Part shown: one piece after another, positions 27,350 through 49,934 of the stretch
Layout of the letters: the number at the start of each line of letters is the position of its first letter
Numbering within the stretch: position 1 is the stretch's first letter
IMG/VR virus record: IMGVR_UViG_3300005471_000012
Coordinates: 1 to 64,000 of that record
Origin: a virus
Reading direction: 5' to 3' (one strand)
DNA length: 64,000 nucleotides
The notes under the pieces: model-generated
Database searches by the model: none
Told to the model about the DNA's origin: nothing
The model's input: only the letters and a program-made list of their open reading frames with translations
Made by a program: the position numbers and the translations under genes

Positions 27350-27378
27350 ATGATACGCGATTCTGATAACGCTGTCTA
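27350..27378 (-). promoter_or_regulatory. leftward promoter (TAGACA-17-TATCAT), restriction-modification operon
   Basis: On the minus strand TAGACA and TATCAT are separated by exactly 17 bases (GCGTTATCAGAATCGCG). This is the first of six such promoters, though its spacer core is the most divergent. It stands about 75 bases before the operon start at 27271 and is divergent from the terminase small subunit gene. Confidence 0.8.
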
Positions 27379-27401
27379 GTATCCTCCGAGGAGGTGCCGC
27401 C

Positions 27402-27935
27402 ATGCCGCGCAGCCGCACCGTCGCCGATCGTGAACGCGATGCCAAAGCCCTGTCCCTGCGCGCCCGCGGGTACACGCACCGGCAGATTTCCGCGCAGCTC
27501 GGCTGGAAATCACCCGCGTCCGCCGTCGGCGCCTGCACCCGCGCCATGCAGGACATGTACCGGGAGGATATAGACAAATGGCGCCAGATTGAGCTGGACA
27601 AGCTCGATGACCTGACCCGCGAGGCCTGGGACGCGATGCAGGAAGCCCACTACCTCGTCTCCCAGGGCAAGGTGGTCAAGGACGACGACGGCACGATGCT
27701 CGTCAACGCCGTCGACAAAGTCAGCCAGCTCGGCACGCTTCTGCTGAAGATCAGCGAGTCCCGCCGAAAGCTGCTCGGCATCGACGCCCCGCCGCAGAAG
27801 GCGCCGACGCCCGATAATCTTGATGCCGAGATCGAGACGCTGGTCAAGCAGCTTTCGGGTCTGGGCGACGTGCCGAAGCAGGTGGCGGACGGCACGGTGG
27901 CCGCTATCGAGAGCGCGGCCCCGCCGGGGGCCTGA
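27402..27935 (+). CDS. terminase small subunit, 177 aa
   Basis: Strong GAGGAGG ribosome site. The N-terminus contains a helix-turn-helix (LRARGYTHRQISAQLGWKSP) typical of small terminases, which recognise the packaging site. It is followed by a coiled-coil region (RQIELDKLDDLTREAWDAMQ; KISESRRKLLGI) that would form the ring. It lies immediately before the large subunit gene, the canonical order. Confidence 0.85.
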   Translation: MPRSRTVADRERDAKALSLRARGYTHRQISAQLGWKSPASAVGACTRAMQDMYREDIDKWRQIELDKLDDLTREAWDAMQEAHYLVSQGKVVKDDDGTMLVNAVDKVSQLGTLLLKISESRRKLLGIDAPPQKAPTPDNLDAEIETLVKQLSGLGDVPKQVADGTVAAIESAAPPGA

Positions 27936-27942
27936 GGCCGCA

Positions 27943-32244: not shown

Positions 32245-32871
32245 TCAGCGGTACAGGTTGCCCGGGTTGCGGTCGGTGACCATGCCCAGGATGTCGACCG
32301 GCACCAGCGCGGTAAGGTCCGGCGTGTCATCAGCAGCGGCGATGATCTCGCCGGACGGCCAGCCGCCCATGGGCAGGCTGAACAGGATGTTCCAGCCGGA
32401 TCGGTCCAGCGGGCTGATCATCTCCACGAACCGCCGGGCCGGGCCCGACATCTTGAAGCTGGGCGTCAGCTCCACTGGCGGGCCGCCCCGGCTGACCGGC
32501 TTGCCAGCGTCCCAGATGCTGCCGGAACCGTGCGGGCGCAGTTGCATGGCAATCGCCGGGCCGACCCGGATACCGGGCAGGTGGTCGACGTAGGACCAGA
32601 TGGTGGGGTCCACGCAGGCCGCCAGCGGGTCATACACGTCATCGCCGAGGACGATCCATGAATGCTGGCTGCCGACACCGGGGGCGAATCCGCGGGCGAT
32701 CCGCCCGGGGCCGAAGACGCCGGTGCGGAGAAGCCGCAGGGAGATGTGGTGGCAGCCATGGGCCCACTTGGCGAACGGGGTGTCGATAAGTTCGGCGAGA
32801 CGGTCAGTATCGGCCGCGATGGCATGGAGTTGCACGAGCGTCAGGGGGGTTCTCGCGGCTGGCTGGGTCAT
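32245..32871 (-). CDS. hypothetical protein, 208 aa
   Basis: AGGAGGAAAG ribosome site. Notable segments are FAKWAHGCHHISLRLLRTGV, SWIVLGDDVYDPLAACVDPT and GNILFS-type beta strands near the end. One Cys and several His/Asp could suggest a cysteine-peptidase-like or zinc fold, but no pattern is decisive. Last gene of the leftward block. Confidence 0.65.
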   Translation of the reverse strand: MTQPAARTPLTLVQLHAIAADTDRLAELIDTPFAKWAHGCHHISLRLLRTGVFGPGRIARGFAPGVGSQHSWIVLGDDVYDPLAACVDPTIWSYVDHLPGIRVGPAIAMQLRPHGSGSIWDAGKPVSRGGPPVELTPSFKMSGPARRFVEMISPLDRSGWNILFSLPMGGWPSGEIIAAADDTPDLTALVPVDILGMVTDRNPGNLYR

Positions 32872-32955
32872 CTTTCCTCCTAGTTAGTCCGGTCCGGGTG
32901 GGTCGGGTTCCCTGATCGCAGCGCGCACGGCGGACCCGTGAACGCTGGCGGCGGG

Positions 32956-33231
32956 TCAGCCGGCTAGGCGGGCCGCCGCGCCTGGTTCGCACAGGCAGCA
33001 AAGATCGCCGGGGGCGCGATCCGGATCCCGCCCGCAGCGCCACGAGCACGGCTGGGAGATGCAGTCGCCGTAGGTGCGGTGAACGCGCTCGGTCTTCCAG
33101 CTCTGGTAGCCAATCCCGCCGGCGGGCGGTATTTTCCACTCCTGGTAGCGCGTGCCCGGCTCGATCGGCAGCCGGCAGCGGGAGCACCTGTGCCGCTGGC
33201 GAGCTGTCCGCTCGCAGACGATGGCGCTCAT
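32956..33231 (-). CDS. Cys-rich zinc-binding protein, 91 aa
   Basis: CERTARQRHRCSRCRLPIEP contains the first CxxC. Further Cys residues (DCISQPCSWRCG, LCCLCEPG) can form two or three zinc sites. Such compact multi-zinc proteins are common early genes of actinophages. Function unknown. Its ATG overlaps the stop of the upstream gene (ATGA). Confidence 0.7.
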   Translation of the reverse strand: MSAIVCERTARQRHRCSRCRLPIEPGTRYQEWKIPPAGGIGYQSWKTERVHRTYGDCISQPCSWRCGRDPDRAPGDLCCLCEPGAAARLAG

Positions 33232-33785
33232 GGCGCGGCCAGGAGCGTGTCGATTTCCGCGATGCGGGCCGCGAGGCGCTTACGCTCGGCGGCCAGCGCG
33301 GCAATGTCAGCCTGCTCGCCGGTGATCGCGTATGTTCCCGGGTTCACGACGCTGAGCGCGGCCCGGGGGATGTCCCGGATCTCGGCGATCACGTTGTAGT
33401 CGATAGCAAGCGCGGGGTTTTTCATGCTGCCGCCGCTGGACGGCACCCGGCCCTCGACGACAACGACGCCGTCCGCGAAGCGGACCCCTTGGTCGCGGCC
33501 TGGGCGCTCGGCGATCCGCCGCCCGGCGAACGTCGCGTGCTGATAGTCAGCGAAGTCCTTCAGCTTGATGCGAACGGTGACCAGGTCGGCCGCGTCGGCG
33601 GCGCAGCCGTCAGTGCCGAAGATTTCGCGGGCAAGGTCGCGTACCCGGTCTTCGTCACGGGCGTCGAACTGCCAGCTGGCCCCGTTCCACGACCCGCCCA
33701 TGGGCTTGGCACGGTTGATGATGCCGGTGTTGTACGGGCAGGTTAGGGTGACGGTCGTGCCGTTGTTCTCAACGTTTACGTACAT
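33228..33785 (-). CDS. conserved phage/plasmid protein with AKPMGGSWNG motif, 185 aa
   Basis: Starts with YVNVENNGTTVTLTCPYNTG and contains INRAKPMGGSWNGASWQFDA followed by RDEDRVRDLAREIFG. That phrase resembles the short HARP-type DNA-binding motif (position, then conversion to a shape-reading strand) of helicase accessory proteins. The C-terminus ends with a helical arm (IAALAAERKRLAARIAEIDT). May bind branched DNA; that is inference. Confidence 0.65.
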   Translation of the reverse strand: MYVNVENNGTTVTLTCPYNTGIINRAKPMGGSWNGASWQFDARDEDRVRDLAREIFGTDGCAADAADLVTVRIKLKDFADYQHATFAGRRIAERPGRDQGVRFADGVVVVEGRVPSSGGSMKNPALAIDYNVIAEIRDIPRAALSVVNPGTYAITGEQADIAALAAERKRLAARIAEIDTLLAAP

Positions 33786-33800
33786 GGCATTCCCCTTTCT

Positions 33801-34118
33801 CTAGCTGTCGCTCCTGGCTGACTGGTGAGCCGGGCGGACCGAGGCCTGCCCGAGTGCGGTGAGTTCATAGACGGTATGCGTGCCCTCTGGCGCATGGGCC
33901 TCGCGGCAGCTGACGAGTTTCCGGCCGATCAGGTCGGCCAGGATCTTCTTGACGGCGTCTTCTTTCAGGGGGCTTTCGCCCGGCCGCCAGGCCATCCTGG
34001 TAATCTTGCGGGCGCTCGCGGGACGGCGGCGGGAGATGCTGTCAATGGCATTCATCACCCTCTCCGCCCGTGCGCGGACCACGACCTTGCTGGCATCGTG
34101 GTCATCGTTTGCGTACAT
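33801..34118 (-). CDS. winged-helix-like DNA-binding protein, 105 aa
   Basis: Sequence order ASARKITRMAWRPGESPLKE, DAVKKILADLIGRKLVSCRE and HTVYELTALGQASV gives helix, recognition helix and strand, as in winged helix proteins. It is small, basic at the N-terminus and probably regulates transcription or replication within the early region. Confidence 0.65.
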   Translation of the reverse strand: MYANDDHDASKVVVRARAERVMNAIDSISRRRPASARKITRMAWRPGESPLKEDAVKKILADLIGRKLVSCREAHAPEGTHTVYELTALGQASVRPAHQSARSDS

Positions 34119-34127
34119 GTCCCCTCG

Positions 34128-34721
34128 CTAGCTGCCGGCCAGGTCGCTGGCACGTACGGTGATCCCCTCTTCGTCCCCGGCCGGGTCGTAGTCCCAGGCG
34201 AGCCATCCGGAGCCTTCCCGGAACACGCCGGGCTCGACTTCGCCGCCGGTCGTCACCTCGTGCTCCCGGTCTTCCGCGGTCTCGCCGTTCTCAAGCGGCT
34301 CGGCGAGACGGGCGAGCGCTTCCCGCAGGTTCCTCTCAAGCCGCCGGCGGATCTTCTGCCGCCCGTCGCGGATCTCTTCGGCGTGCGCGACGGCGAGCGC
34401 CTCGGCGCACAGGCTGATCGCCGCGCCGCTCGTGTCCGCCGCGGTGAACCAGTCGACGGACAGCCACTCGCCGCAGCCATGTTGCTTGGACCACTCTTCG
34501 ATCGCGCCGCCTTGCCCGGCGCCGGTGTCGAGCAGCACCGGGCAGCGGTCGATGACCCGGGCGACCGGCTGACCGCACTGCGGGCAGGTGTCACCGACCC
34601 GGTCGGCCCAGACGATCGCGTAGGCGAGATGCCCGCCGGTGACGATGTCGCGGCCGGCGAGGATCTCGGCGTGGATGCCCGGCGGCAGCTTCACGGTCAC
34701 CTGATAGTCGTCATCGTTCAT
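34128..34721 (-). CDS. zinc-site-containing hypothetical protein, 197 aa
   Basis: ATG 34721 is preferred over 34727 because of GGAGGGG spacing. Contains TCPQCGQPVARVIDRCP, GAIEEWSKQHGCGEWLSVDW and long helices (IRRRLERNLREALARLAEPL). One zinc site is likely. Function unknown. Confidence 0.65.
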   Translation of the reverse strand: MNDDDYQVTVKLPPGIHAEILAGRDIVTGGHLAYAIVWADRVGDTCPQCGQPVARVIDRCPVLLDTGAGQGGAIEEWSKQHGCGEWLSVDWFTAADTSGAAISLCAEALAVAHAEEIRDGRQKIRRRLERNLREALARLAEPLENGETAEDREHEVTTGGEVEPGVFREGSGWLAWDYDPAGDEEGITVRASDLAGS

Positions 34722-34791
34722 GATCATCCCCTCCGTTCGTTAGGCCGCGAGCTGGGAGGCGGGATACGGCCACCGCGCACCCTTCCTGCTG

Positions 34792-35217
34792 TTACAGGGC
34801 CAGCAGGCTGGCCGCTGATTCGCGGGCCACGCCGATCCACCGCGGGCAAGTGGCTTGACGTGATCCATTAGCGTGGCTGGTGCCTGGCACATCCAGCATC
34901 GGCCACCGTAGTAAGCCCAGCGAGCCGCCAGTTGCTCTGGCGTTGCGCTCCCTGCAGCTCAGCCGGGAACCGTGCTCGTACCGGACGCAAGTCCACGGGT
35001 CACCATCCGGGCCGCCGTCAGAGCAGTGATCGAGCCGGTAGCCGATCTCGTAATAGTCCCTGTCGCTCCTGGGCGCCTGGACCGCGTACGTGACCGTGAG
35101 CAGCGAGCCGGGCAGGTCCGGGCGGATGAACCGGACGCTGAAGGACTCCCCGGCCTGGATGTCGCCGTCGGGCTGCACGCCCGTGCAGTCAGTGCGCCAC
35201 TGGCCATCGGGCGCCAT
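34792..35217 (-). CDS. hypothetical protein, 141 aa
   Basis: Beta-rich opening (GESFSVRFIRPDLPGSLLTV) and a Cys-containing segment (HCSDGGPDGDPWTCVRYEHG, SRLSCRERNA) suggest a small beta domain plus a zinc knuckle. The tail is variable. No family recognised. Confidence 0.55.
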   Translation of the reverse strand: MAPDGQWRTDCTGVQPDGDIQAGESFSVRFIRPDLPGSLLTVTYAVQAPRSDRDYYEIGYRLDHCSDGGPDGDPWTCVRYEHGSRLSCRERNARATGGSLGLLRWPMLDVPGTSHANGSRQATCPRWIGVARESAASLLAL

Positions 35218-35218
35218 A

Positions 35219-35455
35219 TCAGATCACCTCCAGGAATCTGACCGCATCCATGCCGTACTGGTCCAGCAGGTCCATAACCTGCGCCGCCTTAAGCCCTCTG
35301 CGCTGCGCACCTTCCCAGACCGGCTTGGGCGGAAATCCCCAGTCCGCAGCCAGTAGCTCAATGGTTACCGCCATAACCGCAGCATTCGCGGTGGCACCAT
35401 TACGTCCGGCCCGAAGGGCTCTTTCGTAGGTCACGATCCGGCCGTAAACGCCCAT
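35219..35455 (-). CDS. small hypothetical protein, 78 aa
   Basis: ATG 35455 has GGGAGG upstream; the stop of the previous gene overlaps it. Contains MGVYGRIVTYERALRAGRNG and VMDLLDQYGMDAVRFLEVI, a mostly helical small fold. Function unknown. Confidence 0.6.
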   Translation of the reverse strand: MGVYGRIVTYERALRAGRNGATANAAVMAVTIELLAADWGFPPKPVWEGAQRRGLKAAQVMDLLDQYGMDAVRFLEVI

Positions 35456-35835
35456 CACATTGCCTCCCTTAGTCCGGCTTCCTCCAGCAGTTGCTCGGTG
35501 CGTTCCCAGCGCTCCTGAGCGGCCCCCTCGTCGTCGCCGTAGTACTGGCACTGGTGCTCAAGGCAGAACAGGTCCGGGTCGTCACCCCCGGTATCGGTGA
35601 TCTCCCGCCCGCAGTAGATGGCGCTGCCGTCCCAGCCATTGGGCCGGATCTGCCACGGGCAGCGGCCCTGCTTGCGCAGGCGCCGCTCAACCTTGCTCGG
35701 GCGCCCGTTGTCGATTACCTCGCAGGCAGCGTTGTCGGCCCTGACCACGCGCTCGCAGACGGCATGGGCCCAGCCATCGTGGTCACCGGAAAGGGGGTGA
35801 CCGCAGTACATGCAGTCGTTCTCCGCGGCGGCCAT
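35455..35835 (-). CDS. zinc-knuckle protein, 126 aa
   Basis: Starts at ATG 35835 with GAGAGG upstream. N-terminal knuckle CMYCGHPLSGDHDGWAHAVC is followed by a probable second site (AIYCGREI...DLFCLEHQC) and an acidic helix. Two zinc sites suggest nucleic-acid or protein binding. Ends overlapping the next start. Confidence 0.65.
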   Translation of the reverse strand: MAAAENDCMYCGHPLSGDHDGWAHAVCERVVRADNAACEVIDNGRPSKVERRLRKQGRCPWQIRPNGWDGSAIYCGREITDTGGDDPDLFCLEHQCQYYGDDEGAAQERWERTEQLLEEAGLREAM

Positions 35836-36167
35836 CACATCGCCTCTCGTAGTGCGGCTACCGCCGCGTCCTTGTCGTCTGGCCTCACCAGCACCTCGCG
35901 GGGACCGGCCCCGTTGTCGTAGACGATCTTGCTCAGCCATTGCGTTGTGGCCAGGTGCCGGTCGCCGTGCTCGGTGAACTCGACGAAGTGGCGGCCGATG
36001 CGGGCGAGGACCGTGCCGTAAAGGCTGAACATCACGTGCTCGTCATCCCGCCACACGTGCACCGTGGTGCCGATGTCGAGCGTGTCGTGACCCTCAATCC
36101 AGGCGGTCAGTCCTTCGTGCGTTAGCTCCGGCGTGTTCTCCGGCATCTTGAAAATGTACGGTGGCAT
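35835..36167 (-). CDS. hypothetical protein, 110 aa
   Basis: Strong ribosome site (AGGAGGGA). An alpha/beta pattern (HEGLTAWIEGHDTLDIGTTV; HVWRDDEHVMFSLYGTVLAR; PDDKDAAVAALREAM) with many charged residues, typical of small phage early proteins. Function unknown. Confidence 0.65.
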   Translation of the reverse strand: MPPYIFKMPENTPELTHEGLTAWIEGHDTLDIGTTVHVWRDDEHVMFSLYGTVLARIGRHFVEFTEHGDRHLATTQWLSKIVYDNGAGPREVLVRPDDKDAAVAALREAM

Positions 36168-36207
36168 CTGATTCCCTCCTGGCTGGTAGTGCGTTAAAGG
36201 GGCCGGG

Positions 36208-37766: not shown

Positions 37767-37780
37767 GAGACGAGTTCCTC

Positions 37781-41185: not shown

Positions 41186-41233
41186 CGTCCTGATTCCCTT
41201 CTCTCGCTTGCCGTCAGCCCGAGCGTGGCGCGC

Positions 41234-41623
41234 TCAGCCGCGGGCCCAGTAGGTAACCCCGCCGAAATCGACGCTCGCGTAGTCCTGCTTGAGCGCATCG
41301 GCGTACGCCTGCCAGTCGACATAGGCGGACACGGAGCCTTCGTCCCGGCAGTCCCCGGTGTCGTCGGCCAGGTCCCGGGCGTAGTCCCCGAAATGCGAGT
41401 CGCGGATCAGGGTGACGCTGCCCGGCCAGGACAGCAGGCCGCTGCCTGCCAGGCCCCGGGCGTCGTCGCGCAACTCGCGCAGCGCGGCTAGTTCTTCCGC
41501 GTCCCAGTCCTCAAGGTCGTTGCCATGCCGCCGGAGTCCTTTCTGCGTGGTCTCCAGGTCGGCGATCCGTGCGTCAACGTCGGTGGCGTTAATGAAGTCC
41601 TCGCCGTTGTCGATCGCATCCAC
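41234..41623 (-). CDS. conserved phage early protein ending YWARG, 129 aa
   Basis: GTG 41623 has AAGGGAG upstream. DFINATDVDARIADLETTQK, LAALRELRDDARGL and SVTLIRDSHFGDYARDLADD, then the ending YASVDFGGVTYWARG, match a small acidic protein found in phages of diverse bacteria. It is sometimes labelled antirestriction-like, but evidence for that here is thin. Function unknown. Confidence 0.65.
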   Translation of the reverse strand: MDAIDNGEDFINATDVDARIADLETTQKGLRRHGNDLEDWDAEELAALRELRDDARGLAGSGLLSWPGSVTLIRDSHFGDYARDLADDTGDCRDEGSVSAYVDWQAYADALKQDYASVDFGGVTYWARG

Positions 41624-41709
41624 GTCCTTGCTCCCTTCCTTCGGTGGTCCTAGCGTGCATCCCAGCCCTGACGTGACCTGCTGACAGCGCCTCGCCGGCT
41701 GGGGGCGCG

Positions 41710-42156
41710 CTAGCGCCTTGACGCGATATGCCCGTCCAGGTCGGCGAGCAGCTGATTGCCGGCGCTGACCGCCTCGCGGAGCACGGCGAGAGCGGCGTCC
41801 GCGCCCCGCCCGGGCTCCTGGCCGCCGAGGTGCCGGATCTTGGAGTAGTAGGTGAACAGCTTGAGGCTCCCCGGCCCGTCCAGGTAAACCAGCCACGTGT
41901 AGCCGATCTCGCCTTCGCTGTCGTCGTCGTAGTCGAAAGCGATCTCGCCCGGCCCGGTGATCAGCCCGCTCGCCTTGGCCCCGGCGACGATGTCGTACGT
42001 CGTCGCCCCGCCGTCGTCCTCGTGCGGGTCATAGCTCGCGCTCAGTTCCAGCTCGGGTGCCTGGCTGGTCTCACCCGCGGACCGCGGCTCGAACTGCGCT
42101 ACGGCACGGGCAAGCCATGCGGCGGCGCGCTTCTCGTCTAGCGTGAATTCCTGCAT
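41710..42156 (-). CDS. acidic hypothetical protein, 148 aa
   Basis: AGGGAGG ribosome site. Opens with a helix (MQEFTLDEKRAAAWLARAVA), then acidic beta strands (ELELSASYDPHEDDGGATTY; SEGEIGYTWLVYLDGPGSLK) and a final helix. No family recognised. Confidence 0.6.
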   Translation of the reverse strand: MQEFTLDEKRAAAWLARAVAQFEPRSAGETSQAPELELSASYDPHEDDGGATTYDIVAGAKASGLITGPGEIAFDYDDDSEGEIGYTWLVYLDGPGSLKLFTYYSKIRHLGGQEPGRGADAALAVLREAVSAGNQLLADLDGHIASRR

Positions 42157-42170
42157 TGCGGTGATCCTCC

Positions 42171-42635
42171 CTAGCGCTTGCGCTCAGCGCGCTTGATTGC
42201 CTGCCCGGCCGCCTTGAGGTCCGCGGCGAGCGCGGGCAGTTTCGCCGCCATGTCCGCCCGCGCTTCGGCGATCATCTCTGGCACCGGGTAGCCGGGGTCA
42301 TCGTCAGGCATCCCGGCGATCATGTAATCCAGGTCGATCATGCGGATGCCGGTAACGTTGTCGTCCTCATCGGTCAGGGTGACCCGGCCGTGCTCCACCC
42401 CGCCGAGCACCTGACGGAAGCGGTCAAGGTCCAGCCCGGCCAGCCGCGGCGTCACGACAACGATCACGTACTCCCAGTCGCCGGCCCTGAACGCGGCCAC
42501 CTGGGCCGGGGTGTAGCCGTCGCCTTCGGGCTCGCCCATCGCGTTCAGCGACTCGTCGGGCTCAAGCTGGACATGCCAGGTCAGTCCGGGCACGTCCTTG
42601 TCAGGTATGACCTTGCTCTTGATCACGTACGTCAC
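42171..42635 (-). CDS. hypothetical protein, 154 aa
   Basis: GTG 42635. Alternating strands (TYVIKSKVIPDKDVPGLTWH; WEYVIVVVTPRLAGLDLDRF) and a C-terminal helix (ARADMAAKLPALAADLKAAG). Similar small alpha/beta proteins are common in phage early regions. Function unknown. Confidence 0.6.
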   Translation of the reverse strand: MTYVIKSKVIPDKDVPGLTWHVQLEPDESLNAMGEPEGDGYTPAQVAAFRAGDWEYVIVVVTPRLAGLDLDRFRQVLGGVEHGRVTLTDEDDNVTGIRMIDLDYMIAGMPDDDPGYPVPEMIAEARADMAAKLPALAADLKAAGQAIKRAERKR

Positions 42636-42638
42636 GGG

Positions 42639-43244
42639 TCAGCCTTCCTCGCGTAGCTCGCCGGTCACGTGCAGCGCCCGGCTCCTGGTAACGAATGCGT
42701 CGTCGTCACTTTCCGGCCAGCCGAGATAAGTGCCGTCCGTGTCGTGATCGCACTCGTGCCACTGGTAGCGGTCCGGGTGTACGGCGACGCGGCGCAACAT
42801 GAATGTCCAGTCAGCCCGCCATCCGGCTGTACCGAAGTCCGCTTGCCCGCGGTGCGGGGCATCCAGCCACGCGGGGTCAACCTCAATTACGGTGTAGACC
42901 AGCACGCCATCCTCGCGCCGGGCGAAGATCAGCCAGTCGTCGGCGCCGAGCACCCGGAGGATCGCGGGCGGCATCAGGCCAGCGGGGATCGTGTCGGCCC
43001 GCACGTCGTAGAAGCTGTCACCGTAGAACGGCAGGCAGCCGTCAGGCTCGCCCGCTGAGCTGCTCACAGCCGCCCGGCGGCCATGACGCTCGCCGGGCTT
43101 GTCCAGCCACCGCGTGATCGCGTAGCACCGGCCGCCCGTCTTCACGACCATGCCCGGGGCGAGCTGTAGCGCGTCAACCGAGCGGTAGCGGATGCGGTCG
43201 ACCTTGACGCCGAGCGCATCGTACTGGGCGGGCTTCCTGGTCAT
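42639..43244 (-). CDS. hypothetical protein, 201 aa
   Basis: ATG 43244, overlapping the previous gene. Beta-rich (LAPGMVVKTGGRCYAITRWL; VLVYTVIEVDPAWLDAPHRG) with Trp-containing stretches. One Cys only near HECDHDTDGT. No family. Confidence 0.6.
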   Translation of the reverse strand: MTRKPAQYDALGVKVDRIRYRSVDALQLAPGMVVKTGGRCYAITRWLDKPGERHGRRAAVSSSAGEPDGCLPFYGDSFYDVRADTIPAGLMPPAILRVLGADDWLIFARREDGVLVYTVIEVDPAWLDAPHRGQADFGTAGWRADWTFMLRRVAVHPDRYQWHECDHDTDGTYLGWPESDDDAFVTRSRALHVTGELREEG

Positions 43245-43699
43245 GACTGCCCCGCCTTCGCCGGCTCGTCGTTGTCGTGCGCGTTCGCCCACTTGCGGGC
43301 GGCGCTCTTGCTCGCGGTGTACTCGCTGACCCACGGGCACCGGGTGCACCGGGCGTAGAACCCGGCGCGGTTAAGTACGATCTCGCAGTTGACCGTGGTG
43401 GCCACGACCGCGGAGCCAGGCCACGCCTGGCCCGCGGCATCCGCCGGCTCTTGCTCGTGCACGGTCAGCTTCACGGCGGCGATGTTCGCCCGGTAGCTTC
43501 CCCGGCGCGGCCGGTCATTGATCACGGGCATCCCCTCCAGCGTGATCCGCTGGCCCTTGACGGGTGCCTCCGTGAAAGACTTGAGGTAGGTCATGGTGAC
43601 CGGCCCGGCGTCCCCGCGGTCGATCGTGACCGACAGGAACACGGAGCCGTGCGCAGTCGTGCGGCGCACCACCCGGGTAACCGTCCCGGTGATCGTCAT
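43241..43699 (-). CDS. beta-rich protein with C-terminal zinc site, 152 aa
   Basis: Begins MTITGTVTRVVRRTTAHGSV and VTIDRGDAGPVTMTYLKSFT, strands like an OB or beta-barrel fold. The C-terminus holds CTRCPWVSEYTASKSAARKW. Probably binds nucleic acid; that is inference. Confidence 0.6.
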   Translation of the reverse strand: MTITGTVTRVVRRTTAHGSVFLSVTIDRGDAGPVTMTYLKSFTEAPVKGQRITLEGMPVINDRPRRGSYRANIAAVKLTVHEQEPADAAGQAWPGSAVVATTVNCEIVLNRAGFYARCTRCPWVSEYTASKSAARKWANAHDNDEPAKAGQS

Positions 43700-43926
43700 G
43701 TCTGCCGCCTCGCCCCGGCCTGCTTCTCGTAGAGCAGGCTGGCGACTTCATCAGCGCTGTCCATCGTCAGGCCAGCCGCATCGGTGATCAGTTCGATCAG
43801 CGCCCGGCTGTACTCGGGGTTGTCTTCGGCCGTACCGGGCCGCGCCAGCCCCGCGCTGTCAGGTCCCAGCTTGCGTGCCAGCCTGATCAGCTCACCGATG
43901 GTGACCCTGCGCGTAGTGTCGATCAT
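43696..43926 (-). CDS. hypothetical helical protein, 76 aa
   Basis: First gene after promoter 43972-44000, preceded by GGGATGGG. Mostly helical (RRVTIGELIRLARKLGPDSA; ALIELITDAAGLTMDSADEV). Its leading segment resembles small regulators, but no family is recognised. Confidence 0.6.
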   Translation of the reverse strand: MIDTTRRVTIGELIRLARKLGPDSAGLARPGTAEDNPEYSRALIELITDAAGLTMDSADEVASLLYEKQAGARRQT

Positions 43927-43971
43927 GACCGTGTCCCATCCCTCTGGCTAGACTTCCGATCCCTACACGAC

Positions 43972-44000
43972 ACGATACGCCATTAGGCGAAACGTGTCTA
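43972..44000 (-). promoter_or_regulatory. leftward promoter (TAGACA-17-TATCGT)
   Basis: Minus strand: TAGACA, 17-base spacer CGTTTCGCCTAATGGCG, TATCGT. Predicted start near 43965, about 40 bases before the gene at 43926. It shares TTCGCCTAA with the promoter at 47771. Confidence 0.88.
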
Positions 44001-44100
44001 CCTTTTAGCGTGCCGGATGCCTGCCGTGTTCACCGAACACACGCATGCTGAACGGCGGCGGCCTCGCGCGAGTGGGCTGGCGCCCGCGCGGGCAGCGGAA

Positions 44101-44131
44101 AGCCCCGCCCGGGGGCTGTCCGGGCGGGGCT
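44101..44131 (-). terminator. 12-bp terminator hairpin of the recombinase gene
   Basis: AGCCCCGCCCGG pairs perfectly with CCGGGCGGGGCT across 7 bases. On the minus strand it is followed by TTTCC, so it terminates leftward transcription of the recombinase gene. Confidence 0.8.
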
Positions 44132-44147
44132 CCTGGTGGCGTGGTGC

Positions 44148-44732
44148 CTAGCTGGCCGCCCTAGCCCGCGCTATCGTGCGGTACACGGTCGGCCGCGAGA
44201 CGTCGAACAGCTCGGCCAGCTCGGTAATGTTGTGGCCGCCGGCCCGGTGCAGGGTGAGCAGGTGCGCTTGCCTGGTAGCGGACAGCTTGGGCGGCTTGCC
44301 CCTGAGGTGCCCTTTGGCCCGTGCGATGGCCATGCCCTCGCGGGTGCGCATGCGGAGCAGGTCGACCTCGAATTCGGCGAAGATCGCGAGTATGGCGAAG
44401 AACATCTTGCCCATCGGGTCGGCCGGGTCGTAGATGGTGCCGCCGAGTGAGAGTTTCACCCCGCGGGCCGTCAGGTCGTCGGCGATGTCCTGGAAATCGC
44501 GCACCGATCGCGCGAGCCGGTCCAGCTTGGGCGTCACGAGCGTGTCCCCGCTTCGCACGGCGGCTAGCGCTTTGCCTAGTTCCGGCCGGTCGCGGTTGGT
44601 GCCGGTTAGCCCGTGGTCCAGGTAGATGCGCCCGGGAGTCACCCCCAGGTCGCGGAGGGCCGCTTTCTGGGCGGCAAGATCCTGCTTTACGGTACTGCAC
44701 CGGGCGTAGCCCGTAAGCGTGTCGTTTCCCAT
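44148..44732 (-). CDS. serine recombinase (resolvase/invertase), 194 aa
   Basis: TGYARCSTVKQDLAAQKAAL places the catalytic Ser at residue 13. DTLVTPKLDRLARSVRDFQD has the catalytic Arg pair. MGKMFFAILAIFAEFEVDLL is the dimerisation E-helix region, and ITELAELFDVSRPTVYRTIA the C-terminal helix-turn-helix. Length and layout match small resolvases. ATG 44732 is preferred; a longer start would include the inverted repeat at 44740-44781. It could resolve multimers or invert DNA. Confidence 0.88.
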   Translation of the reverse strand: MGNDTLTGYARCSTVKQDLAAQKAALRDLGVTPGRIYLDHGLTGTNRDRPELGKALAAVRSGDTLVTPKLDRLARSVRDFQDIADDLTARGVKLSLGGTIYDPADPMGKMFFAILAIFAEFEVDLLRMRTREGMAIARAKGHLRGKPPKLSATRQAHLLTLHRAGGHNITELAELFDVSRPTVYRTIARARAAS

Positions 44733-44739
44733 GCGGGGA

Positions 44740-44781
44740 GTGTACGGTAAGCGGGGCTGAGCGGTCAAATCCACCGTACAC
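44740..44781. promoter_or_regulatory. 9-bp inverted repeat upstream of the recombinase gene
   Basis: GTGTACGGT and ACCGTACAC are exact complements separated by 24 bases, just upstream of the recombinase start. This may be its own operator or crossover (res-like) site. Confidence 0.65.
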
Positions 44782-44953
44782 CCTATCTGAGACGGTCTTT
44801 CGGCAGGTCGGCACCTGACGGCAAGTGCATTTGGCGGCGTCCGCTGAAGGTTCCCCTACCGGACGCTTCGTAAACGGACATACCGGGCGCCCGTGCGCGG
44901 GGCTGAGCGGGCCGGTGCCGAGCCGGCGCCGGCAGGTACCCGGGCATACGGAA

Positions 44954-44992
44954 AGCCCGCCGATCGACCGCGTACGGCCAGATCAGCGGGCT
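44954..44992 (-). terminator. hairpin terminator for the 45.1-kb genes
   Basis: AGCCCGCCGATC pairs with GATCAGCGGGCT (one mismatch) across 15 bases. On the minus strand it is followed by TTTCC. The 190 bases between here and the recombinase contain no convincing gene. Confidence 0.7.
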
Positions 44993-45008
44993 AGTTCCGG
45001 GCGGATGA

Positions 45009-45128
45009 TCAGTTTCTGCCCGCGGTGCGCCGCATCTCGCGCGGCAGGGTGAGCGACACGAGCCACACGACAGGCCACATGGCCGCGCAGAATGCGGCCA
45101 GCAGCCGGCCCGGCTTGTCCGGGCTCAC
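45009..45128 (-). CDS. small membrane protein, 39 aa
   Basis: GTG 45128 overlaps the stop of the 45125 gene (GTGA). The peptide contains a hydrophobic helix (LLAAFCAAMWPVVWLVSLTL) followed by a basic tail. Such tiny membrane peptides occur among phage early genes. Confidence 0.5.
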   Translation of the reverse strand: MSPDKPGRLLAAFCAAMWPVVWLVSLTLPREMRRTAGRN

Positions 45129-45427
45129 GCTTCGGCGCTCTTGGCGAACCGCGCGGCCAGCCATGCCGTGTCCGCCTGGGCGAGCTGCGACCAGGCTAGG
45201 TAATCGGCGGGGTCGCCGGTAGCCTGCCAGCGGAGAAACATGGCGTGCTCGGCGTGGCGGGCCCTGATCGAGTCGGCCAGCAGGTTACGGGCCTGCTTTC
45301 GCGAGATGCGCCGGCGTCCGATGTACGGCCGTGCGGTCGCCTCCCGGGCGGCGTCGCCGGCAGGCGCGTATGCTTGGGCGTGGCGCCCGCGGCGGCCTGC
45401 GATCACCGGGCTTGGGCTGGTGGTCAT
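45125..45427 (-). CDS. hypothetical basic protein, 100 aa
   Basis: ATG 45427 after AAAGGACC. Basic central segment (RRRISRKQARNLLADSIRAR) then helix (YLAWSQLAQADTAWLAARF). The basic helix would suit DNA or RNA binding. No family recognised. Confidence 0.6.
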   Translation of the reverse strand: MTTSPSPVIAGRRGRHAQAYAPAGDAAREATARPYIGRRRISRKQARNLLADSIRARHAEHAMFLRWQATGDPADYLAWSQLAQADTAWLAARFAKSAEA

Positions 45428-45525
45428 GGGTCTGGTCCTTTCATCCTTGGCTAGGATTCCGATCGGCCGGCCTGGCCGTCGCGGCGCCGTCCCGGCAGGA
45501 CCGGGGCGGCACCGTGACAGCCCGC

Positions 45526-45777
45526 CTAGCGGCTGAGCCGCTTGTCGCGCTGCTCGTTGTTCTCGCACCGCCAGATGTGGCCGTCCGGGGTTGGCACCCG
45601 GACTAGCCGTTTCCCGACGTCGCCGGCCTGGACGTAGCCGATCACGTCGCCAACGGGGATCAGGCCCTCGGTCGTGCGGATGCGGAGCTTGCCGACGTCA
45701 TCCGCCGTGATCGTGTAGAACACCCGCTCGGCAGGCCGGGGCTCGGCCTCGGGCTCGGGCTTGAATATTTCCCGCAT
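45526..45777 (-). CDS. beta-rich hypothetical protein, 83 aa
   Basis: ATG 45777. Beta strands (RVFYTITADDVGKLRIRTTE; VIGYVQAGDVGKRLVRVPTP) suggest a small barrel, similar to OB-fold-like early proteins. Ends basic (NEQRDKRLSR). Confidence 0.6.
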   Translation of the reverse strand: MREIFKPEPEAEPRPAERVFYTITADDVGKLRIRTTEGLIPVGDVIGYVQAGDVGKRLVRVPTPDGHIWRCENNEQRDKRLSR

Positions 45778-45824
45778 GGTCTCTCTGTCCTTCCGTGCCG
45801 TGGTGCGGTCGGGATGCCGGGCGG

Positions 45825-46010
45825 TTACCGGCTGTACTTGAGATAGTGGGCGGGCTTCTCGCCCGTGGTGACCTTGCGGATTGCCGCGTCAATCTCGGCG
45901 CGGTTCTCCTGAATGAACTTGCGCATCGACAGGCCCGACGACTGCCACCAGTCGTAAAGCCCTTCATCGTTGTTAATCCAGCCCTCCCGGCTGTCGCCAC
46001 CTCGCGGCAT
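45825..46010 (-). CDS. small helical protein, 61 aa
   Basis: ATG 46010 with AAAGGACGG upstream. Contains DEGLYDWWQSSGLSMRKFIQ and AAIRKVTTGEKPAHYLKYSR, likely helical and basic at the end. Function unknown. Confidence 0.6.
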   Translation of the reverse strand: MPRGGDSREGWINNDEGLYDWWQSSGLSMRKFIQENRAEIDAAIRKVTTGEKPAHYLKYSR

Positions 46011-46101
46011 CGCTGGCCGTCCTTTCACGCTGGCACCCTGCCAGTCATCAGCGCGGGTAGGGTGAGGTTCCCGCGGACGCCGGGCGGGCCGGCGTTTCGG
46101 C

Positions 46102-46632
46102 TTAGCGCCCGGGCAGGTAGCGCCTGACCATGTCAAGGAATCCGGCGGGCAGCTCCCGGACCAGCCACGCCGAGCCGTAGCGGTAGCCGGTGACCGGGCA
46201 CGGCGGCGTTAGGTCCAGGCTCGGCACCGTGCGGCCGTAGCCGTCCGTTTCCATGACTGGCGCCACGTGATCGCAGCCGGCCGTCATGCCGTTCAGGTGC
46301 CATCCGGCCAGCTTGACTAGCGCGGTTGCCTTGCCGGCGTCGAATCCGGGCGCGTACCCGGTTAGCTCGGCCAGCGGTTCCACAGTCGCGCCGCCTGACA
46401 CAATGTCGCGCCAGTCCGGGTGCCAGACTGCGGTTGTGATGGAGAAATCCAGCGGCCGCCGCACTTTGCGATGGTCGGTCGTCTCGTATTCGTCGCGCCG
46501 GTCCAGGCGTTCCATCGTGACCGTCACGGTAACGCGGAGATTCCGCTTGTATCCGTAGCCGGTGCCGGGCACCGTGCCCACGTAGACATCCTCACGGCTG
46601 AGCGCAATCTCGCCGTTTAGCCCTCTGGTCAT
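46102..46632 (-). CDS. hypothetical protein, 176 aa
   Basis: Strand-rich N-terminus (KRNLRVTVTVTMERLDRRDE) and a Trp-containing DFSITTAVWHPDWRDIVSGG are visible. The C-terminal portion includes AGCDHVAPVMETDGYGRTVP and LVRELPAGFLDMVRRYLPG. GGAAAGGA ribosome site. No family. Confidence 0.6.
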   Translation of the reverse strand: MTRGLNGEIALSREDVYVGTVPGTGYGYKRNLRVTVTVTMERLDRRDEYETTDHRKVRRPLDFSITTAVWHPDWRDIVSGGATVEPLAELTGYAPGFDAGKATALVKLAGWHLNGMTAGCDHVAPVMETDGYGRTVPSLDLTPPCPVTGYRYGSAWLVRELPAGFLDMVRRYLPGR

Positions 46633-46678
46633 TTCGTGATCCTTTCCCGTGCCTGTCTGGGCTGGCTGCCGCTAGCTG

Positions 46679-46861
46679 TTACCCGGCGCTCTCGGTGATG
46701 CCGTATTCGCCGATCGTGTTCCCGTTGCCGTCAAGGATCTTGCCTGAGCCGTGGCCGGCCCGGATGCGCCGCGAGACGTTAGCGACGTAATCCGCCACGG
46801 CATCGGGCCCCGATTCGGCCGCCTCGGCATTGTCCAGGTTCATCGTCAGAGTGAAGATCAT
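46679..46861 (-). CDS. small hypothetical protein, 60 aa
   Basis: ATG 46861 with CCGGAGG upstream. MIFTLTMNLDNAEAAESGPD and AVADYVANVSRRIRAGHGSG give strand then helix. It resembles tiny proteins found in arrays in phage early regions. Function unknown. Confidence 0.6.
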   Translation of the reverse strand: MIFTLTMNLDNAEAAESGPDAVADYVANVSRRIRAGHGSGKILDGNGNTIGEYGITESAG

Positions 46862-46948
46862 TTTCGTCCGGCCTCCGGTCGTTTGCCCTGCCTTCGTCAG
46901 TGCCAGGCGGGCAGTCCTGGCAGACACCCGCGCGGCGGGTGTTTCGGC

Positions 46949-47248
46949 TCAGCCCTCGGCCGGGAAGCAGTCCGCATAGGTGAATTCGGAAGCCTCGGAC
47001 TTCCACGGAATGTCTATCGTGTCGTCGCCGGACTCGATTGAGGCTTCGAAGTCGGTCACGTTTGAGAAGTCGCCGGCGTGCGTGTCAAGCCACGCCTGCA
47101 CCGATTCGCGCGTGATCTTGCCATCGCCGTGCTGGCGCACGTTGTCAACGTCATGCCCGCTTAGCTCGTACGTCTGGGCAGCGGTAACGCTCGCCATCCA
47201 TATGGTCCCGATCACCCGGATAACCGACTTGCGGACCGTGTAGCGCAT
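46949..47248 (-). CDS. hypothetical protein, 99 aa
   Basis: ATG 47248. Starts with a basic strand (RYTVRKSVIRVIGTIWMASV) and continues with acidic segments (TDFEASIESGDDTIDIPWKS). Probably a small alpha/beta fold. No family. Confidence 0.6.
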   Translation of the reverse strand: MRYTVRKSVIRVIGTIWMASVTAAQTYELSGHDVDNVRQHGDGKITRESVQAWLDTHAGDFSNVTDFEASIESGDDTIDIPWKSEASEFTYADCFPAEG

Positions 47249-47317
47249 CGTCTTGCCTTCCGTTCGGTTGCCGCTAGAAACTCCGCACCGCGCGCCGTGG
47301 CGCGCGATACGCAACCG

Positions 47318-47740
47318 CTAGGGCGTGCTGTCCTCTGCGGCGAACATTCCAAGCCGCTCATACTCGGCGGCCAGCCATTCCGCCTCGGCCGCGCTGTACT
47401 CCGCCTCGCGGGAAGAGTCGCCTGCATACTCGGAAGCCTCGCCGCGCAATGCGAACGACTCGCCAGCGGCGGACAGGAACGATGCGAGCGCCCGTGCCAT
47501 CTCGGCGTGACCGGCGGGCCGGCCCTGGGGTGACCTGAGGTCGGACCCTTCGAGCACTGTCCGCCCGTCGGCCACGACCAGGTAATCCCATCCGTTGCCG
47601 GCGTACGCCTTGCCTACGGTGCCGCCACCGTGCGCCGACAGGTAGAGCGAGATCTCGCCGGCGCCGGCCATGATCGGCGGTACCTCTACCGCGTACTCAT
47701 GCTCGCTAGCGTCGTATCCGTAGATTTGCTGTCCGGTCAT
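47318..47740 (-). CDS. acidic hypothetical protein, 140 aa
   Basis: First gene after the promoter at 47771-47799. The segments YGYDASEHEYAVEVPPIMAG and LYLSAHGGGTVGKAYAGNGW lead into strands, then a long acidic helix (EAEYSAAEAEWLAAEYERLG). Ribosome site CGGAGGATG. No family. Confidence 0.6.
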   Translation of the reverse strand: MTGQQIYGYDASEHEYAVEVPPIMAGAGEISLYLSAHGGGTVGKAYAGNGWDYLVVADGRTVLEGSDLRSPQGRPAGHAEMARALASFLSAAGESFALRGEASEYAGDSSREAEYSAAEAEWLAAEYERLGMFAAEDSTP

Positions 47741-47770
47741 GACATCCTCCGTTGCTCTGCCTATATCGCC

Positions 47771-47799
47771 ATGATACACGGTTAGGCGAATGGCGTCTA
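47771..47799 (-). promoter_or_regulatory. leftward promoter (TAGACG-17-TATCAT)
   Basis: Minus strand: TAGACG (one change in the -35), 17-base spacer CCATTCGCCTAACCGTG, TATCAT. Start expected near 47765, about 25 bases before the gene at 47740. Confidence 0.8.
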
Positions 47800-47991
47800 G
47801 TTGTTAGGCGTGGTGACCAGCCATCGCGCGGCATCGTCGCGCGTGACCTCATGTAGCCGGCTGTTGCCGTCCGTCACTGTGAGGCGCCGGCCGTGCGCAT
47901 GCACCGCGGCAACAGTGACAGGCCCGTGAGCTGCCGTCTCGACAGTCGCGCCTATCGCCGGCTGCCGGACGCGGCGGGTACGTGCTGCCAT
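47797..47991 (-). CDS. small basic beta-rich protein, 64 aa
   Basis: ATG 47991 is preferred over 48000 because of AACGGAGTGA upstream. Contains TRRVRQPAIGATVETAAHGP and VTVAAVHAHGRRLTVTDGNS, an SH3- or barrel-like small fold, followed by DDAARWLV. Function unknown. Confidence 0.55.
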   Translation of the reverse strand: MAARTRRVRQPAIGATVETAAHGPVTVAAVHAHGRRLTVTDGNSRLHEVTRDDAARWLVTTPNN

Positions 47992-48050
47992 GCTGATCAC
48001 TCCGTTTCGCTGGTCTCGAACGGGCCGGACTGTCCGGCCGGCCCGGTAGC

Positions 48051-48356
48051 TCAGCCGCGCGGCTGGATCGCGGCGTGATTCTTCCGGTAGGTGAACGCGC
48101 GGAAACGCACGATCGGCGGATCATCATCTGTCGCGACAGATGAGCCGGACACGGTCTCAACTGACACGTACCCGGTAACAGTCTTGCCGTGCACCTCCAC
48201 TGCGGCGGGAACACTAAAATACGTGTCCGCCGTTGCCGCTATGCGCTTGAGCGCGCGAACCTTACCGTCAGCGCATTCCGCCCGCCCGCCCGTGAAAACA
48301 TCCCACATGCCGCCGGTAGTGAGACTTGTACCGTTCGCATACTGCCTGATTCCCAT
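48051..48356 (-). CDS. hypothetical protein, 101 aa
   Basis: Contains AVEVHGKTVTGYVSVETVSG and DPPIVRFRAFTYRKNHAAIQ, a beta-strand-rich small protein with one Cys. Leader region matches the repeated ribosome-site pattern of the 47.7-49.9 kb genes. No family. Confidence 0.6.
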   Translation of the reverse strand: MGIRQYANGTSLTTGGMWDVFTGGRAECADGKVRALKRIAATADTYFSVPAAVEVHGKTVTGYVSVETVSGSSVATDDDPPIVRFRAFTYRKNHAAIQPRG

Positions 48357-48431
48357 TGCCCTAACCTCCGGTTGCGTTGCCCGTAATGATCAGTCCGGCC
48401 ACGTGCCAGCGTTCAGAACGCGGCCGGGAGC

Positions 48432-48698
48432 TCACGGCGAGACGGATGCGCTATCCGGCAGGTACTGACGTACGCGATTGATGAAAACGCGGTGCGCTTC
48501 GGCCTGGTCGGCGAAGATCTTTGCCGGCCACCTCGGGTCGGTTTCGTCGCCGTGTGCCGTGACGTTGCGAGAGCTGATCTGCACTAGCGCGCGGCCATCG
48601 GGATGCACCGCGTAAAAGATCCGCGCGGAACCTCCGCCAGTGTGATCCTCGAACACGCCAAGGATCTTGAATCCTTGTATCCGCTGGTATTGCTCCAC
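48432..48698 (-). CDS. hypothetical protein, 88 aa
   Basis: MEQYQRIQGFKILGVFEDHT, IFYAVHPDGRALVQISSRNV and a helical AKIFADQAEAHRVFINRVRQ are visible. Typical alpha/beta early protein with no recognised family. It shares the leader pattern of its neighbours. Confidence 0.6.
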   Translation of the reverse strand: MEQYQRIQGFKILGVFEDHTGGGSARIFYAVHPDGRALVQISSRNVTAHGDETDPRWPAKIFADQAEAHRVFINRVRQYLPDSASVSP

Positions 48699-48705
48699 TG
48701 CTCTG

Positions 48706-48754
48706 ACCTCCGTTGCCCTGTACCTCGCACCGTACGGTCGGACGGTGCGCCATG
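48706..48754. repeat. repeated intergenic element, copy 1 (leader plus hairpin)
   Basis: ACCTCCGTTGCCCTG followed by CTCGCACCGTACGGTCG, G and ACGGTGCGCCATG. The latter forms an inverted repeat (CGCACCGT with ACGGTGCG). The second copy is at 49131-49178 with one mismatch in the 31-bp hairpin part. Confidence 0.8.
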
Positions 48755-48791
48755 GCCGGCGCCAGACTGGGGAGGCTGGCGCCCGCCATGA

Positions 48792-49124
48792 TCAGCTTGT
48801 GATTTTCCAGAACGATACGGCGTGACGTTCGCCGCCGAGATTGCTGCCGCACACATCGCAGGCGGACCAGCTGAACGACTCTGTCTCGCAGTCGCACTCG
48901 CTGCCAGCCTCGCCGGCCGTCTGGCCGTCAAAGTCGTCCGTGCATGAGTGCTCGCTGCGGAGTAGCCCTAGCGTGATCCTGTAGCCGGCGTTGCGCGTGT
49001 CAATCTCTGCCTGCCAGGCGGTAACGTGCGCCGCGCTCCAATCGGCCGGCGTCTCGCCGTTTGCCAGCAAAAACAGGCAGTCCGTGCACGCCCAACCGCT
49101 GCACGTGTACTCATCTGTTGCCAT
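48792..49124 (-). CDS. Cys-rich phage protein (CSGWACTDC type), 110 aa
   Basis: TCSGWACTDCLFLLANGETP and ACDVCGSNLGGERHAVSFWK flank a helical middle. This N-terminal phrase is recognisable in many actinophage early proteins. Probably two zinc sites. ATG 49124 follows the conserved GGAGGTAAGGCAATG leader. Function unknown. Confidence 0.65.
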   Translation of the reverse strand: MATDEYTCSGWACTDCLFLLANGETPADWSAAHVTAWQAEIDTRNAGYRITLGLLRSEHSCTDDFDGQTAGEAGSECDCETESFSWSACDVCGSNLGGERHAVSFWKITS

Positions 49125-49130
49125 TGCCTT

Positions 49131-49178
49131 ACCTCCGTTGCCCTGCACTCGCACCGTACGGTCGCACGGTGCGCCATG
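49131..49178. repeat. repeated intergenic element, copy 2 (leader plus hairpin)
   Basis: Same ACCTCCGTTGCCCTG block and hairpin as at 48706-48754, with one substitution. It lies directly upstream (on the minus strand) of the CSGWACTDC protein gene. Confidence 0.8.
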
Positions 49179-49221
49179 AAGCGCGGCAGGCCTGCCGGAC
49201 TGTCACGCAACATGATCAGCG

Positions 49222-49506
49222 TTAGGCGTTCGGGTTGGGGCCCGTCCGCCATGCGTAGGCCGGCGAGATACGGCCAATGCCGGCCCGGTAGTGATGCTTG
49301 GAACGCGGCACGATGCGAGCGGCATAGTTGCCGGCGATGACCTCGCCGCGCCGGTAGGCACCGCGCGTTGCCGTGACCTTAACGGTGATACTGCCGGACA
49401 GTTCGTGTCCGGCAGCTCCGGCAACTACCTCGGTAACCTTTACCGGCACCATGCCGTTACGCATCGTGTCGATATACGCCAACTCGCCTGCATAGTGGTC
49501 AGTCAT
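49222..49506 (-). CDS. hypothetical beta-rich protein, 94 aa
   Basis: NGMVPVKVTEVVAGAAGHEL and SGSITVKVTATRGAYRRGEV are strand-rich; the end is basic (SKHHYRAGIGRISPAYAWR). Leader follows the same GGAGGTAGGG pattern. Function unknown. Confidence 0.6.
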   Translation of the reverse strand: MTDHYAGELAYIDTMRNGMVPVKVTEVVAGAAGHELSGSITVKVTATRGAYRRGEVIAGNYAARIVPRSKHHYRAGIGRISPAYAWRTGPNPNA

Positions 49507-49573
49507 TGCCCTACCTCCGTTGCGTTGCCGTATCGATCACGGCCGGCACGTGCGAGACGTGCCGGCGAGTCCG

Positions 49574-49873
49574 CTACGCCGACTCTGAGCAGTCATCCTC
49601 AGCGCACGACGTAACCCACCAGGCGGTAGGTATGTCATGCGCCGAGTCGGGGTTCGTCGCCGTGTAGACCAGGAAGTCCTGACCTGCCGTTGCGCCGTGA
49701 ATCGCAGTGTGCGCTTCGAGGTACTGTTCGTCCGTGCCGTCATCCCATGCGCGCTCAAGATCCTCACGCAGAGCTGACAGCGCATCGGACCAATCCGCGT
49801 ACGGGTAGCCCGCATCATCCGACTCGGGCAGGTAGCCTGCCACGTTGTGGCCAGCGTGCCAGTGCATCGCCAT
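49574..49873 (-). CDS. hypothetical protein, 99 aa (first of the leftward block)
   Basis: ATG 49873 (ATG 49867 also possible). Contains HAGHNVAGYLPESDDAGYPY, ADWSDALSALREDLERAWDD and a strand near DFLVYTATNPDSAHD. Acidic alpha/beta fold, unknown function. Transcribed from the promoter at 49906-49934. Confidence 0.6.
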   Translation of the reverse strand: MAMHWHAGHNVAGYLPESDDAGYPYADWSDALSALREDLERAWDDGTDEQYLEAHTAIHGATAGQDFLVYTATNPDSAHDIPTAWWVTSCAEDDCSESA

Positions 49874-49905
49874 TGCCTTACCTCCGTTGCTTGCCGATAC
49901 TCGGC

Positions 49906-49934
49906 ACGATACAGCATCATGCGAACGCTGTCTA
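49906..49934 (-). promoter_or_regulatory. leftward promoter (TAGACA-17-TATCGT), first of the block
   Basis: Minus strand: TAGACA, 17-base spacer GCGTTCGCATGATGCTG, TATCGT. The TTCGCATGATG core is intact. It starts the leftward early block and is about 280 bases from the divergent portal gene. Confidence 0.88.

What the first reader, a model, noticed from the sequence alone, without database searches (positions are those of the whole stretch)
27350..49934. Six matched leftward promoters with a common internal core, one driving the restriction-modification operon
Minus-strand TAGACA (TAGACG once), exactly 17 bp, then TATCAT or TATCGT occurs at 27350-27378, 37342-37370, 39161-39189, 43972-44000, 47771-47799 and 49906-49934. 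The spacer holds TTCGC/TTCGG-A/C-T in five of them. A conserved core between -35 and -10 is unlikely by chance in a GC-rich genome and suggests one repressor covering all copies, like a distributed operator system. The XamI-type operon is under the same promoter type, so it is probably part of the phage regulon.
Basis: partly seen in the sequence, partly recalled or inferred. Interest (0 to 1): 0.85.

Follow-up and report, generated by a model that had tools for sequence, protein, structure and literature searches.

The report
Phage promoters sharing one palindromic operator
A soil-type bacterial virus carries six look-alike leftward promoters, each built around the same palindromic binding site, so a single regulator probably switches its early genes and a captured restriction-modification operon together; this is a new example of a known kind of viral gene control.

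Summary
Six TAGACR-N17-TATCRT sites lie exactly as stated; they are the only exact matches in the 91,148-bp phage record, all on the minus strand, each 30-54 nt upstream of a leftward gene. They are sigma-A-like promoters. A symmetric model trained only on the five TTCG-core promoters, with both hexamers removed, still finds the restriction-modification (R-M) promoter, which lacks that core. A seventh, weaker copy (27296-27322) lies in the R-M leader, with a perfect GCCAT-N7-ATGGC on the same axis. A related phage contig independently has three leftward promoters with the same palindrome at the same offset from the -35, although the -10 is shifted by one base and the downstream genes are unrelated. 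This separates the operator from sigma recognition. The XamI-type R-M pair is a mobile cassette captured behind a phage-type promoter. Best reading: one phage regulator, probably a repressor, acts at dispersed operators. The regulator is unidentified; the first gene of the R-M operon (26507-27295) is a candidate without homologues. New member of a known kind (P1 C1, L5 stoperators).

The parts
27350..27378 (-). promoter 1 (TAGACA-N17-TATCAT) of the R-M operon; operator dyad 27352-27378
   Evidence: held-out symmetric model without hexamers ranks it directly after the training sites (4 of 91,070 positions higher)
27296..27322 (.). seventh, weaker operator in the R-M leader; perfect GCCAT-N7-ATGGC; no -35
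   Evidence: top hit of 91,070 positions with a model made only from relative G003, half-site columns 6-11
26507..27295 (-). first gene of R-M operon, 254-262 aa, duplicated HTH-like segment, no homologues; candidate autoregulated regulator
   Evidence: internal repeat, 0 of 2000 shuffles reach it; no hits and only non-HTH noise; only weak, apparently spurious hits
24882..26510 (-). Eco57I/N6-MTase-like DNA methyltransferase of the XamI-type R-M pair
23996..24916 (-). XamI-type restriction endonuclease
   Evidence: PF09572, E 2.6e-38
37342..37370 (-). promoter 2 with operator, upstream of gene 36716-37297; the TAG of its -35 is the stop codon of gene 37368-37766
39161..39189 (-). promoter 3 with operator, upstream of gene 38565-39122
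43972..44000 (-). promoter 4 with operator, upstream of gene 43696-43926
47771..47799 (-). promoter 5 with operator, upstream of gene 47318-47740
49906..49934 (-). promoter 6 with operator (perfect ACAGC-N11-GCTGT), upstream of gene 49574-49873 and just left of the rightward portal gene; same place as in relative G003
32245..49873 (-). leftward module of about 40 small genes between terminase and portal, served by promoters 2-6

Best explanation
The six sites are host sigma-A-type leftward promoters of a temperate, partition-gene-carrying actinobacterial phage. Each overlies one palindromic operator (about 27 bp, best inner form GCCAT-N7-ATGGC between the -35 and -10). A single phage-encoded DNA-binding regulator, most likely a dimeric repressor, binds each palindrome, covers the -35 and -10 together and stops initiation, so the early leftward operons are silent in the lysogen and come on together when it is removed. 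The R-M cassette, captured behind a phage gene (26507), is driven by the same promoter type with two copies of the operator and so belongs to the regulon. Two operators in front of 26507 suggest autoregulation, which would make 26507 the regulator. Shown: promoter-like sites, palindrome, extra copy, conservation in a relative, capture of the cassette. Inferred: repression, lysogeny, host sigma-A, identity of the regulator.
For:: six sites, unique, far above background; all directly upstream of leftward genes; symmetry peaks on one axis (38 matches; the second-best axis has 33 and runs through the -10), column-permutation p 0.0009 before axis choice; among axes that leave the hexamers out, only this one predicts held-out sites (geometric-mean rank 7.8 against 48-236 for axes one or two bases away); model trained without the R-M sites and without hexamers finds the R-M promoter; relative G003 has three leftward promoters TTGAC-RNCAT-N7-TATGGC-ATTACNRT; its model alone ranks all seven window sites in the top 25 of 91,070 positions; without hexamers 7 of 5000 column shuffles reach the observed fit; the symmetry axis is the same; downstream genes share no similarity; 69 of 80 bacterial homologues of the methylase have XamI next to them and none has 26507. 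ParA and BldC; WhiB.
Against: No expression or binding data. No integrase or classical CI-like repressor was found among the proteins scanned, so lysogeny rests on ParA alone. 26507 has no homologue in 22 related phage records, and the 12 weak hits in 394 actinomycete genomes look spurious. Most related phages examined lack the operator. The palindrome is imperfect (5-7 of 13 positions match in each site). A second, weaker axis centred near the -10 (ATGAT-N5-ATCRT in three sites) exists in the window, though relative G003 does not support it.
Confidence: 0.72

Rival explanations
1. The conserved element is an activator site: the six promoters are silent until a phage early protein binds the palindrome and turns them on.
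For: The -35 (TAGACA) departs from TTGACA and there is no TG extended -10, so basal strength may be low. The phage encodes WhiB- and BldC-type regulators.
Against: The palindrome overlies the -35/-10 interval, where binding usually blocks RNA polymerase; MerR-type activators that act there need 19-20 bp spacers (general knowledge) and these are 17. Relative G003 has consensus TTGAC -35 boxes with the same palindrome.
Confidence: 0.15
2. The sites are simply early promoters with an unusually long consensus read by a phage-modified polymerase or a phage sigma factor, with no separate operator.
For: Conservation over 29 bp in one strand direction only; all sites face leftward like the genes.
Against: No phage sigma or RNA polymerase subunit was recognised among the proteins scanned. 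The element is a palindrome, the weaker seventh copy has no -35, and in G003 the palindrome keeps its place while the -10 moves by one base.
Confidence: 0.08
3. The promoters are recent duplicates of one promoter cassette and their likeness is only shared descent.
For: Near-identical boxes and spacing.
Against: Conservation stops at the edges of the 29-mer and the variable positions differ between sites while the palindrome is kept. G003 has the same palindrome with different boxes.
Confidence: 0.04
4. The R-M operon is not in the regulon; its promoter shares only generic sigma-A boxes.
For: It lacks the TTCG core of the other five; with an asymmetric spacer model it is unremarkable (77 positions score higher).
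Against: The symmetric model without hexamers, trained without it, ranks it immediately after the training sites, and a second copy with a perfect inner palindrome sits in its leader.
Confidence: 0.15

Closest known systems
Phage P1 C1 repressor operators (22 dispersed sites, 17-bp consensus ATTGCTCTAATAAATTT; PMC8546580)
   Same: One repressor acting at many operators scattered over a phage maintained as a plasmid; P1 also has an R-M system
   Different: P1 operators are asymmetric 17-mers with no match in the window; here the sites are palindromes overlying sigma-A-type promoters
Cluster A mycobacteriophage (L5) operators and stoperators, 13-bp asymmetric sites bound by a monomeric two-domain repressor (PMC9283540, PMC6550527)
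   Same: Actinophage, dispersed sites with a fixed orientation relative to transcription, parABS-carrying members, candidate regulator with two DNA-binding-like segments
   Different: Stoperators are asymmetric and many lie away from promoters; here six of seven are promoter-embedded palindromes and the L5-type consensus is at chance level
Streptomyces phage phiC31 conserved inverted repeats at early promoters (from memory, not found in the paper library)
   Same: Inverted-repeat operators repeated over the early region of an actinophage, several at early promoters
   Different: Sequence not compared here; no phiC31-type repressor was recognised in this phage

Membership tests
sigma-A/sigma-70-type promoter | -35 near TTGACA, -10 TANNNT, 16-18 bp spacer, upstream of genes | tested here: met
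   (TAGACR, 17 bp, TATCRT); relative G003 has TTGACR, 18 bp, TACNRT
dispersed phage operator system | same regulator site at several promoters of one phage | tested here: met
   (seven sites)
dispersed phage operator system | a phage protein binds the sites and represses | not testable with these tools
   no binding or expression data
cluster A stoperators | 13-bp asymmetric site of the L5 type | tested here: not met
   4 matches with two mismatches, 2.5 expected; the sites here are palindromic. The consensus used was recalled from memory
P1 C1 operators | ATTGCTCTAATAAATTT | tested here: not met
   none with up to 3 mismatches
XamI-type R-M system | RE_XamI endonuclease next to its N6-adenine methyltransferase | tested here: met
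   the same gene pair is seen in 69 of 80 bacterial loci
R-M controller (C protein) operon | first gene is a controller that travels with the R-M pair | tested here: not met
   none of 80 homologous R-M loci has a 26507 homologue
phage-plasmid / partition-based temperate phage | ParA-type partition ATPase encoded | tested here: met
   88602-89273 of the record; no replication or lysogeny test possible

The most novel reading that the evidence does not exclude
The first gene of a phage-borne R-M operon (26507) is itself the master repressor of the phage: an orphan protein with two tandem HTH-like units that binds palindromic operators embedded in every early leftward promoter and in its own leader, so that immunity to sister phages and restriction of other phages are set by one autoregulated operon.
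Probability: 0.25. Interest if true: 0.7.

Novelty: new member of a known kind. Interest (0 to 1): 0.47.

Why it matters
If true, a restriction-modification system, normally controlled by its own C protein or by weak promoters, has been wired into a phage's early/lysogeny switch. Restriction of competitors and superinfection immunity would then be co-regulated. The operator is short, well defined and shared with a related phage whose early genes are unrelated, so the regulator could be fished out directly.

Tried and rejected
Exact and relaxed motif scans of IMG/VR and of GTDB genomes: no other genome was found to use the 29-mer. Searches for relatives of 26507, of the promoter-2 gene 36716 and of the DUF3631 protein in viral contigs: none. 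Single-sequence structure prediction of 26507: mean pLDDT 41, not usable. L130, the best weak hit to 26507 in 394 actinomycete genomes, sits among ordinary metabolic genes and was rejected as chance. Dyad-like hit in relative L010 belongs to an IS200/IS605-type element, judged by eye from its TnpB-like protein. Repeated GGCCA-N17-TGGCC in L012 is scattered, mostly in coding DNA. Single hits of the G003-type promoter in 30 other contigs: mostly AT-rich single sites. Two GC-rich ones (G423, G424) have a small HTH gene beside the site (HTH_31-like and MerR-like), a weak hint at the class of regulator; the G423 protein has no homologue in the window phage and the G424 one only chance-level hits. 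Closely related records G010 and G013 lack the operator and have another intergenic element instead. Alternative symmetry axis at the -10 rejected because it fails in G003.

Full report
OBSERVATION. The six TAGACR-N17-TATCRT sites are at the stated coordinates, all on the minus strand. They are the only exact matches in the whole 91,148-bp phage record in which the window lies. Dinucleotide shuffles give none. In leave-one-out tests each site scores 31.7-42.9 bits, whereas the best of 1.79 million positions in 80 bacterial loci and other viral loci reaches 13.3 against the six-site matrix. A simple codon-model gene call places every site between genes, 30-54 nt upstream of a leftward start. 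Five of them serve a block of about 40 small leftward genes (32245-49873) lying between the terminase and the portal; the sixth serves the operon 26507 - methylase - XamI endonuclease.

WHAT THE CONSERVED CORE IS. The position matrix of the six sites also matched its own reverse complement at two of the sites, and it picked up a seventh place, 27294-27322, at 18.7 bits; apart from those shadow matches nothing else in the record exceeded 7.5. The sites are imperfect 27-bp palindromes whose arms read roughly [TG]A[GT]AC[AG][CG][CG][AG]T[TC]; the -35 and -10 lie in the outer arms. Symmetry peaks on one axis (38 matches; second-best axis 33) and column permutation gives p 0.0009 before correction for choosing the axis. 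The seventh copy has a perfect GCCAT-N7-ATGGC on that same axis. With arms that leave out both hexamers, this axis predicts held-out sites (geometric-mean rank 7.8 of 91,070), while axes one or two bases away do not (48-236); axes further away do well because their arms take in one of the boxes. Trained only on the five TTCG-core promoters, the hexamer-free symmetric model ranks the R-M promoter directly behind the training sites (4 positions higher), although that promoter lacks the TTCG core.

INDEPENDENT SUPPORT FROM A RELATIVE. The contig IMGVR_UViG_3300037258_000641 (G003; portal about 64%, capsid 84% identical) has three leftward promoters TTGAC-RNCAT-N7-TATGGC-ATTACNRT, at 984-1013, 6197-6226 and 8946-8975, the last just left of the portal gene exactly as 49906-49934 is in the window. 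The palindrome keeps its distance to the -35, but the -10 is one base further away. G003's symmetry also peaks at the same axis, and the alternative axis near the -10 fails there. A half-site model made from G003 alone ranks all seven window sites within the top 25 of 91,070 positions, and the seventh site first with columns 6-11. Without the hexamer columns, 7 of 5000 column shuffles fit as well. The genes behind these promoters are unrelated between the two phages. A conserved palindrome with shifting boxes and unrelated downstream genes is what a regulator site looks like, not what sigma factor preference or a duplicated cassette looks like. Most other relatives examined lack it.

THE RESTRICTION-MODIFICATION OPERON. 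The methylase has at least 109 relatives in bacterial genomes (80 kept); in 69 of those 80 the XamI endonuclease sits beside it, and in none does a homologue of 26507. The pair is thus a mobile cassette that landed behind a phage gene and its promoter. 26507 has an internal duplication of an HTH-like stretch (0 of 2000 shuffles reach the score; that it is HTH-like is judged by eye) and lies behind two copies of the operator, the layout of an autoregulated gene. But it has no credible Pfam, NCBIfam, PHROG, PDB or genome homologue, so naming it the regulator is a guess (about one in four).

MECHANISM. Most likely a phage repressor binds each palindrome, covers -35 and -10 at once and blocks initiation; ParA (88602-89273) suggests a lysogen kept as a plasmid. 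Shown by sequence: promoters, palindrome, seventh copy, conservation, cassette capture. Inferred: repression rather than activation, lysogeny, host sigma-A, regulator identity.

COMPARISON. Dispersed operators are known from P1 (22 asymmetric 17-bp C1 sites, PMC8546580) and cluster A mycobacteriophages (asymmetric 13-bp sites bound by a monomeric two-domain repressor, PMC9283540; parABS members in PMC6550527). Neither consensus is present above chance (the L5-type consensus was recalled from memory). phiC31's inverted repeats at early promoters, recalled from memory, are probably the nearest in kind, but no paper on them was found in the library. This is a new member of a known kind; the wiring of a captured R-M cassette into the switch is the unusual part.

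Noticed in passing
window 46882-46949 (-) and 46032-46102 (-): Two type II hammerhead ribozymes (Rfam RF02276, 51 and 32.8 bits; the second is below the gathering score of 37) lie in intergenic gaps of the leftward operon downstream of promoter 5, each just upstream of a small gene.
   Followed up: partly
related phage G010 (55.4-63.4 kb, loci L121, L122) and G013 (0-16 kb, locus L123): Many of the small early genes are preceded by a repeated intergenic RNA-like element; in G010 it reads CTAGCGCGTTGC - variable stem - G[CT]TGCCCGCTAGGGCA, then a GAGAGGAGAGA ribosome site. Nine copies show compensatory changes in the distal stem, and the TGCCCGCTAGGGCA part could form an alternative hairpin. 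Not in Rfam.
   Followed up: partly
window 47740-49873, upstream of genes 48051, 48432, 48792, 49222 and 49574: Small leftward genes share a start-associated sequence close to GGGCAACGGAGGTNAGGGCARTG, resembling the start-associated sequences known from other actinophages (resemblance from memory).
   Followed up: no
window 27820-30450: The terminase large-subunit frame seems interrupted by an intein with an HNH endonuclease (HNH match at 28719-29432, terminase match in the part that follows).
   Followed up: no
window 2-193 (+) and record 86723-86956 (-): The phage encodes a WhiB-type protein (cut by the record's left end) and a BldC-family regulator, two actinobacterial developmental regulators.
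   Followed up: no
G423:39635 (L171) and G424:2129 (L173): Two other GC-rich viral contigs each have one promoter of the G003 type with the same palindrome, beside a small HTH gene (HTH_31-like, divergent; MerR/HTH_17-like), a hint at which regulator class may read such sites.
   Followed up: partly
window 41234-41623 (-): Weak ArdA / anti-restriction protein similarity in the leftward module, of interest next to a phage-borne R-M system.
   Followed up: no
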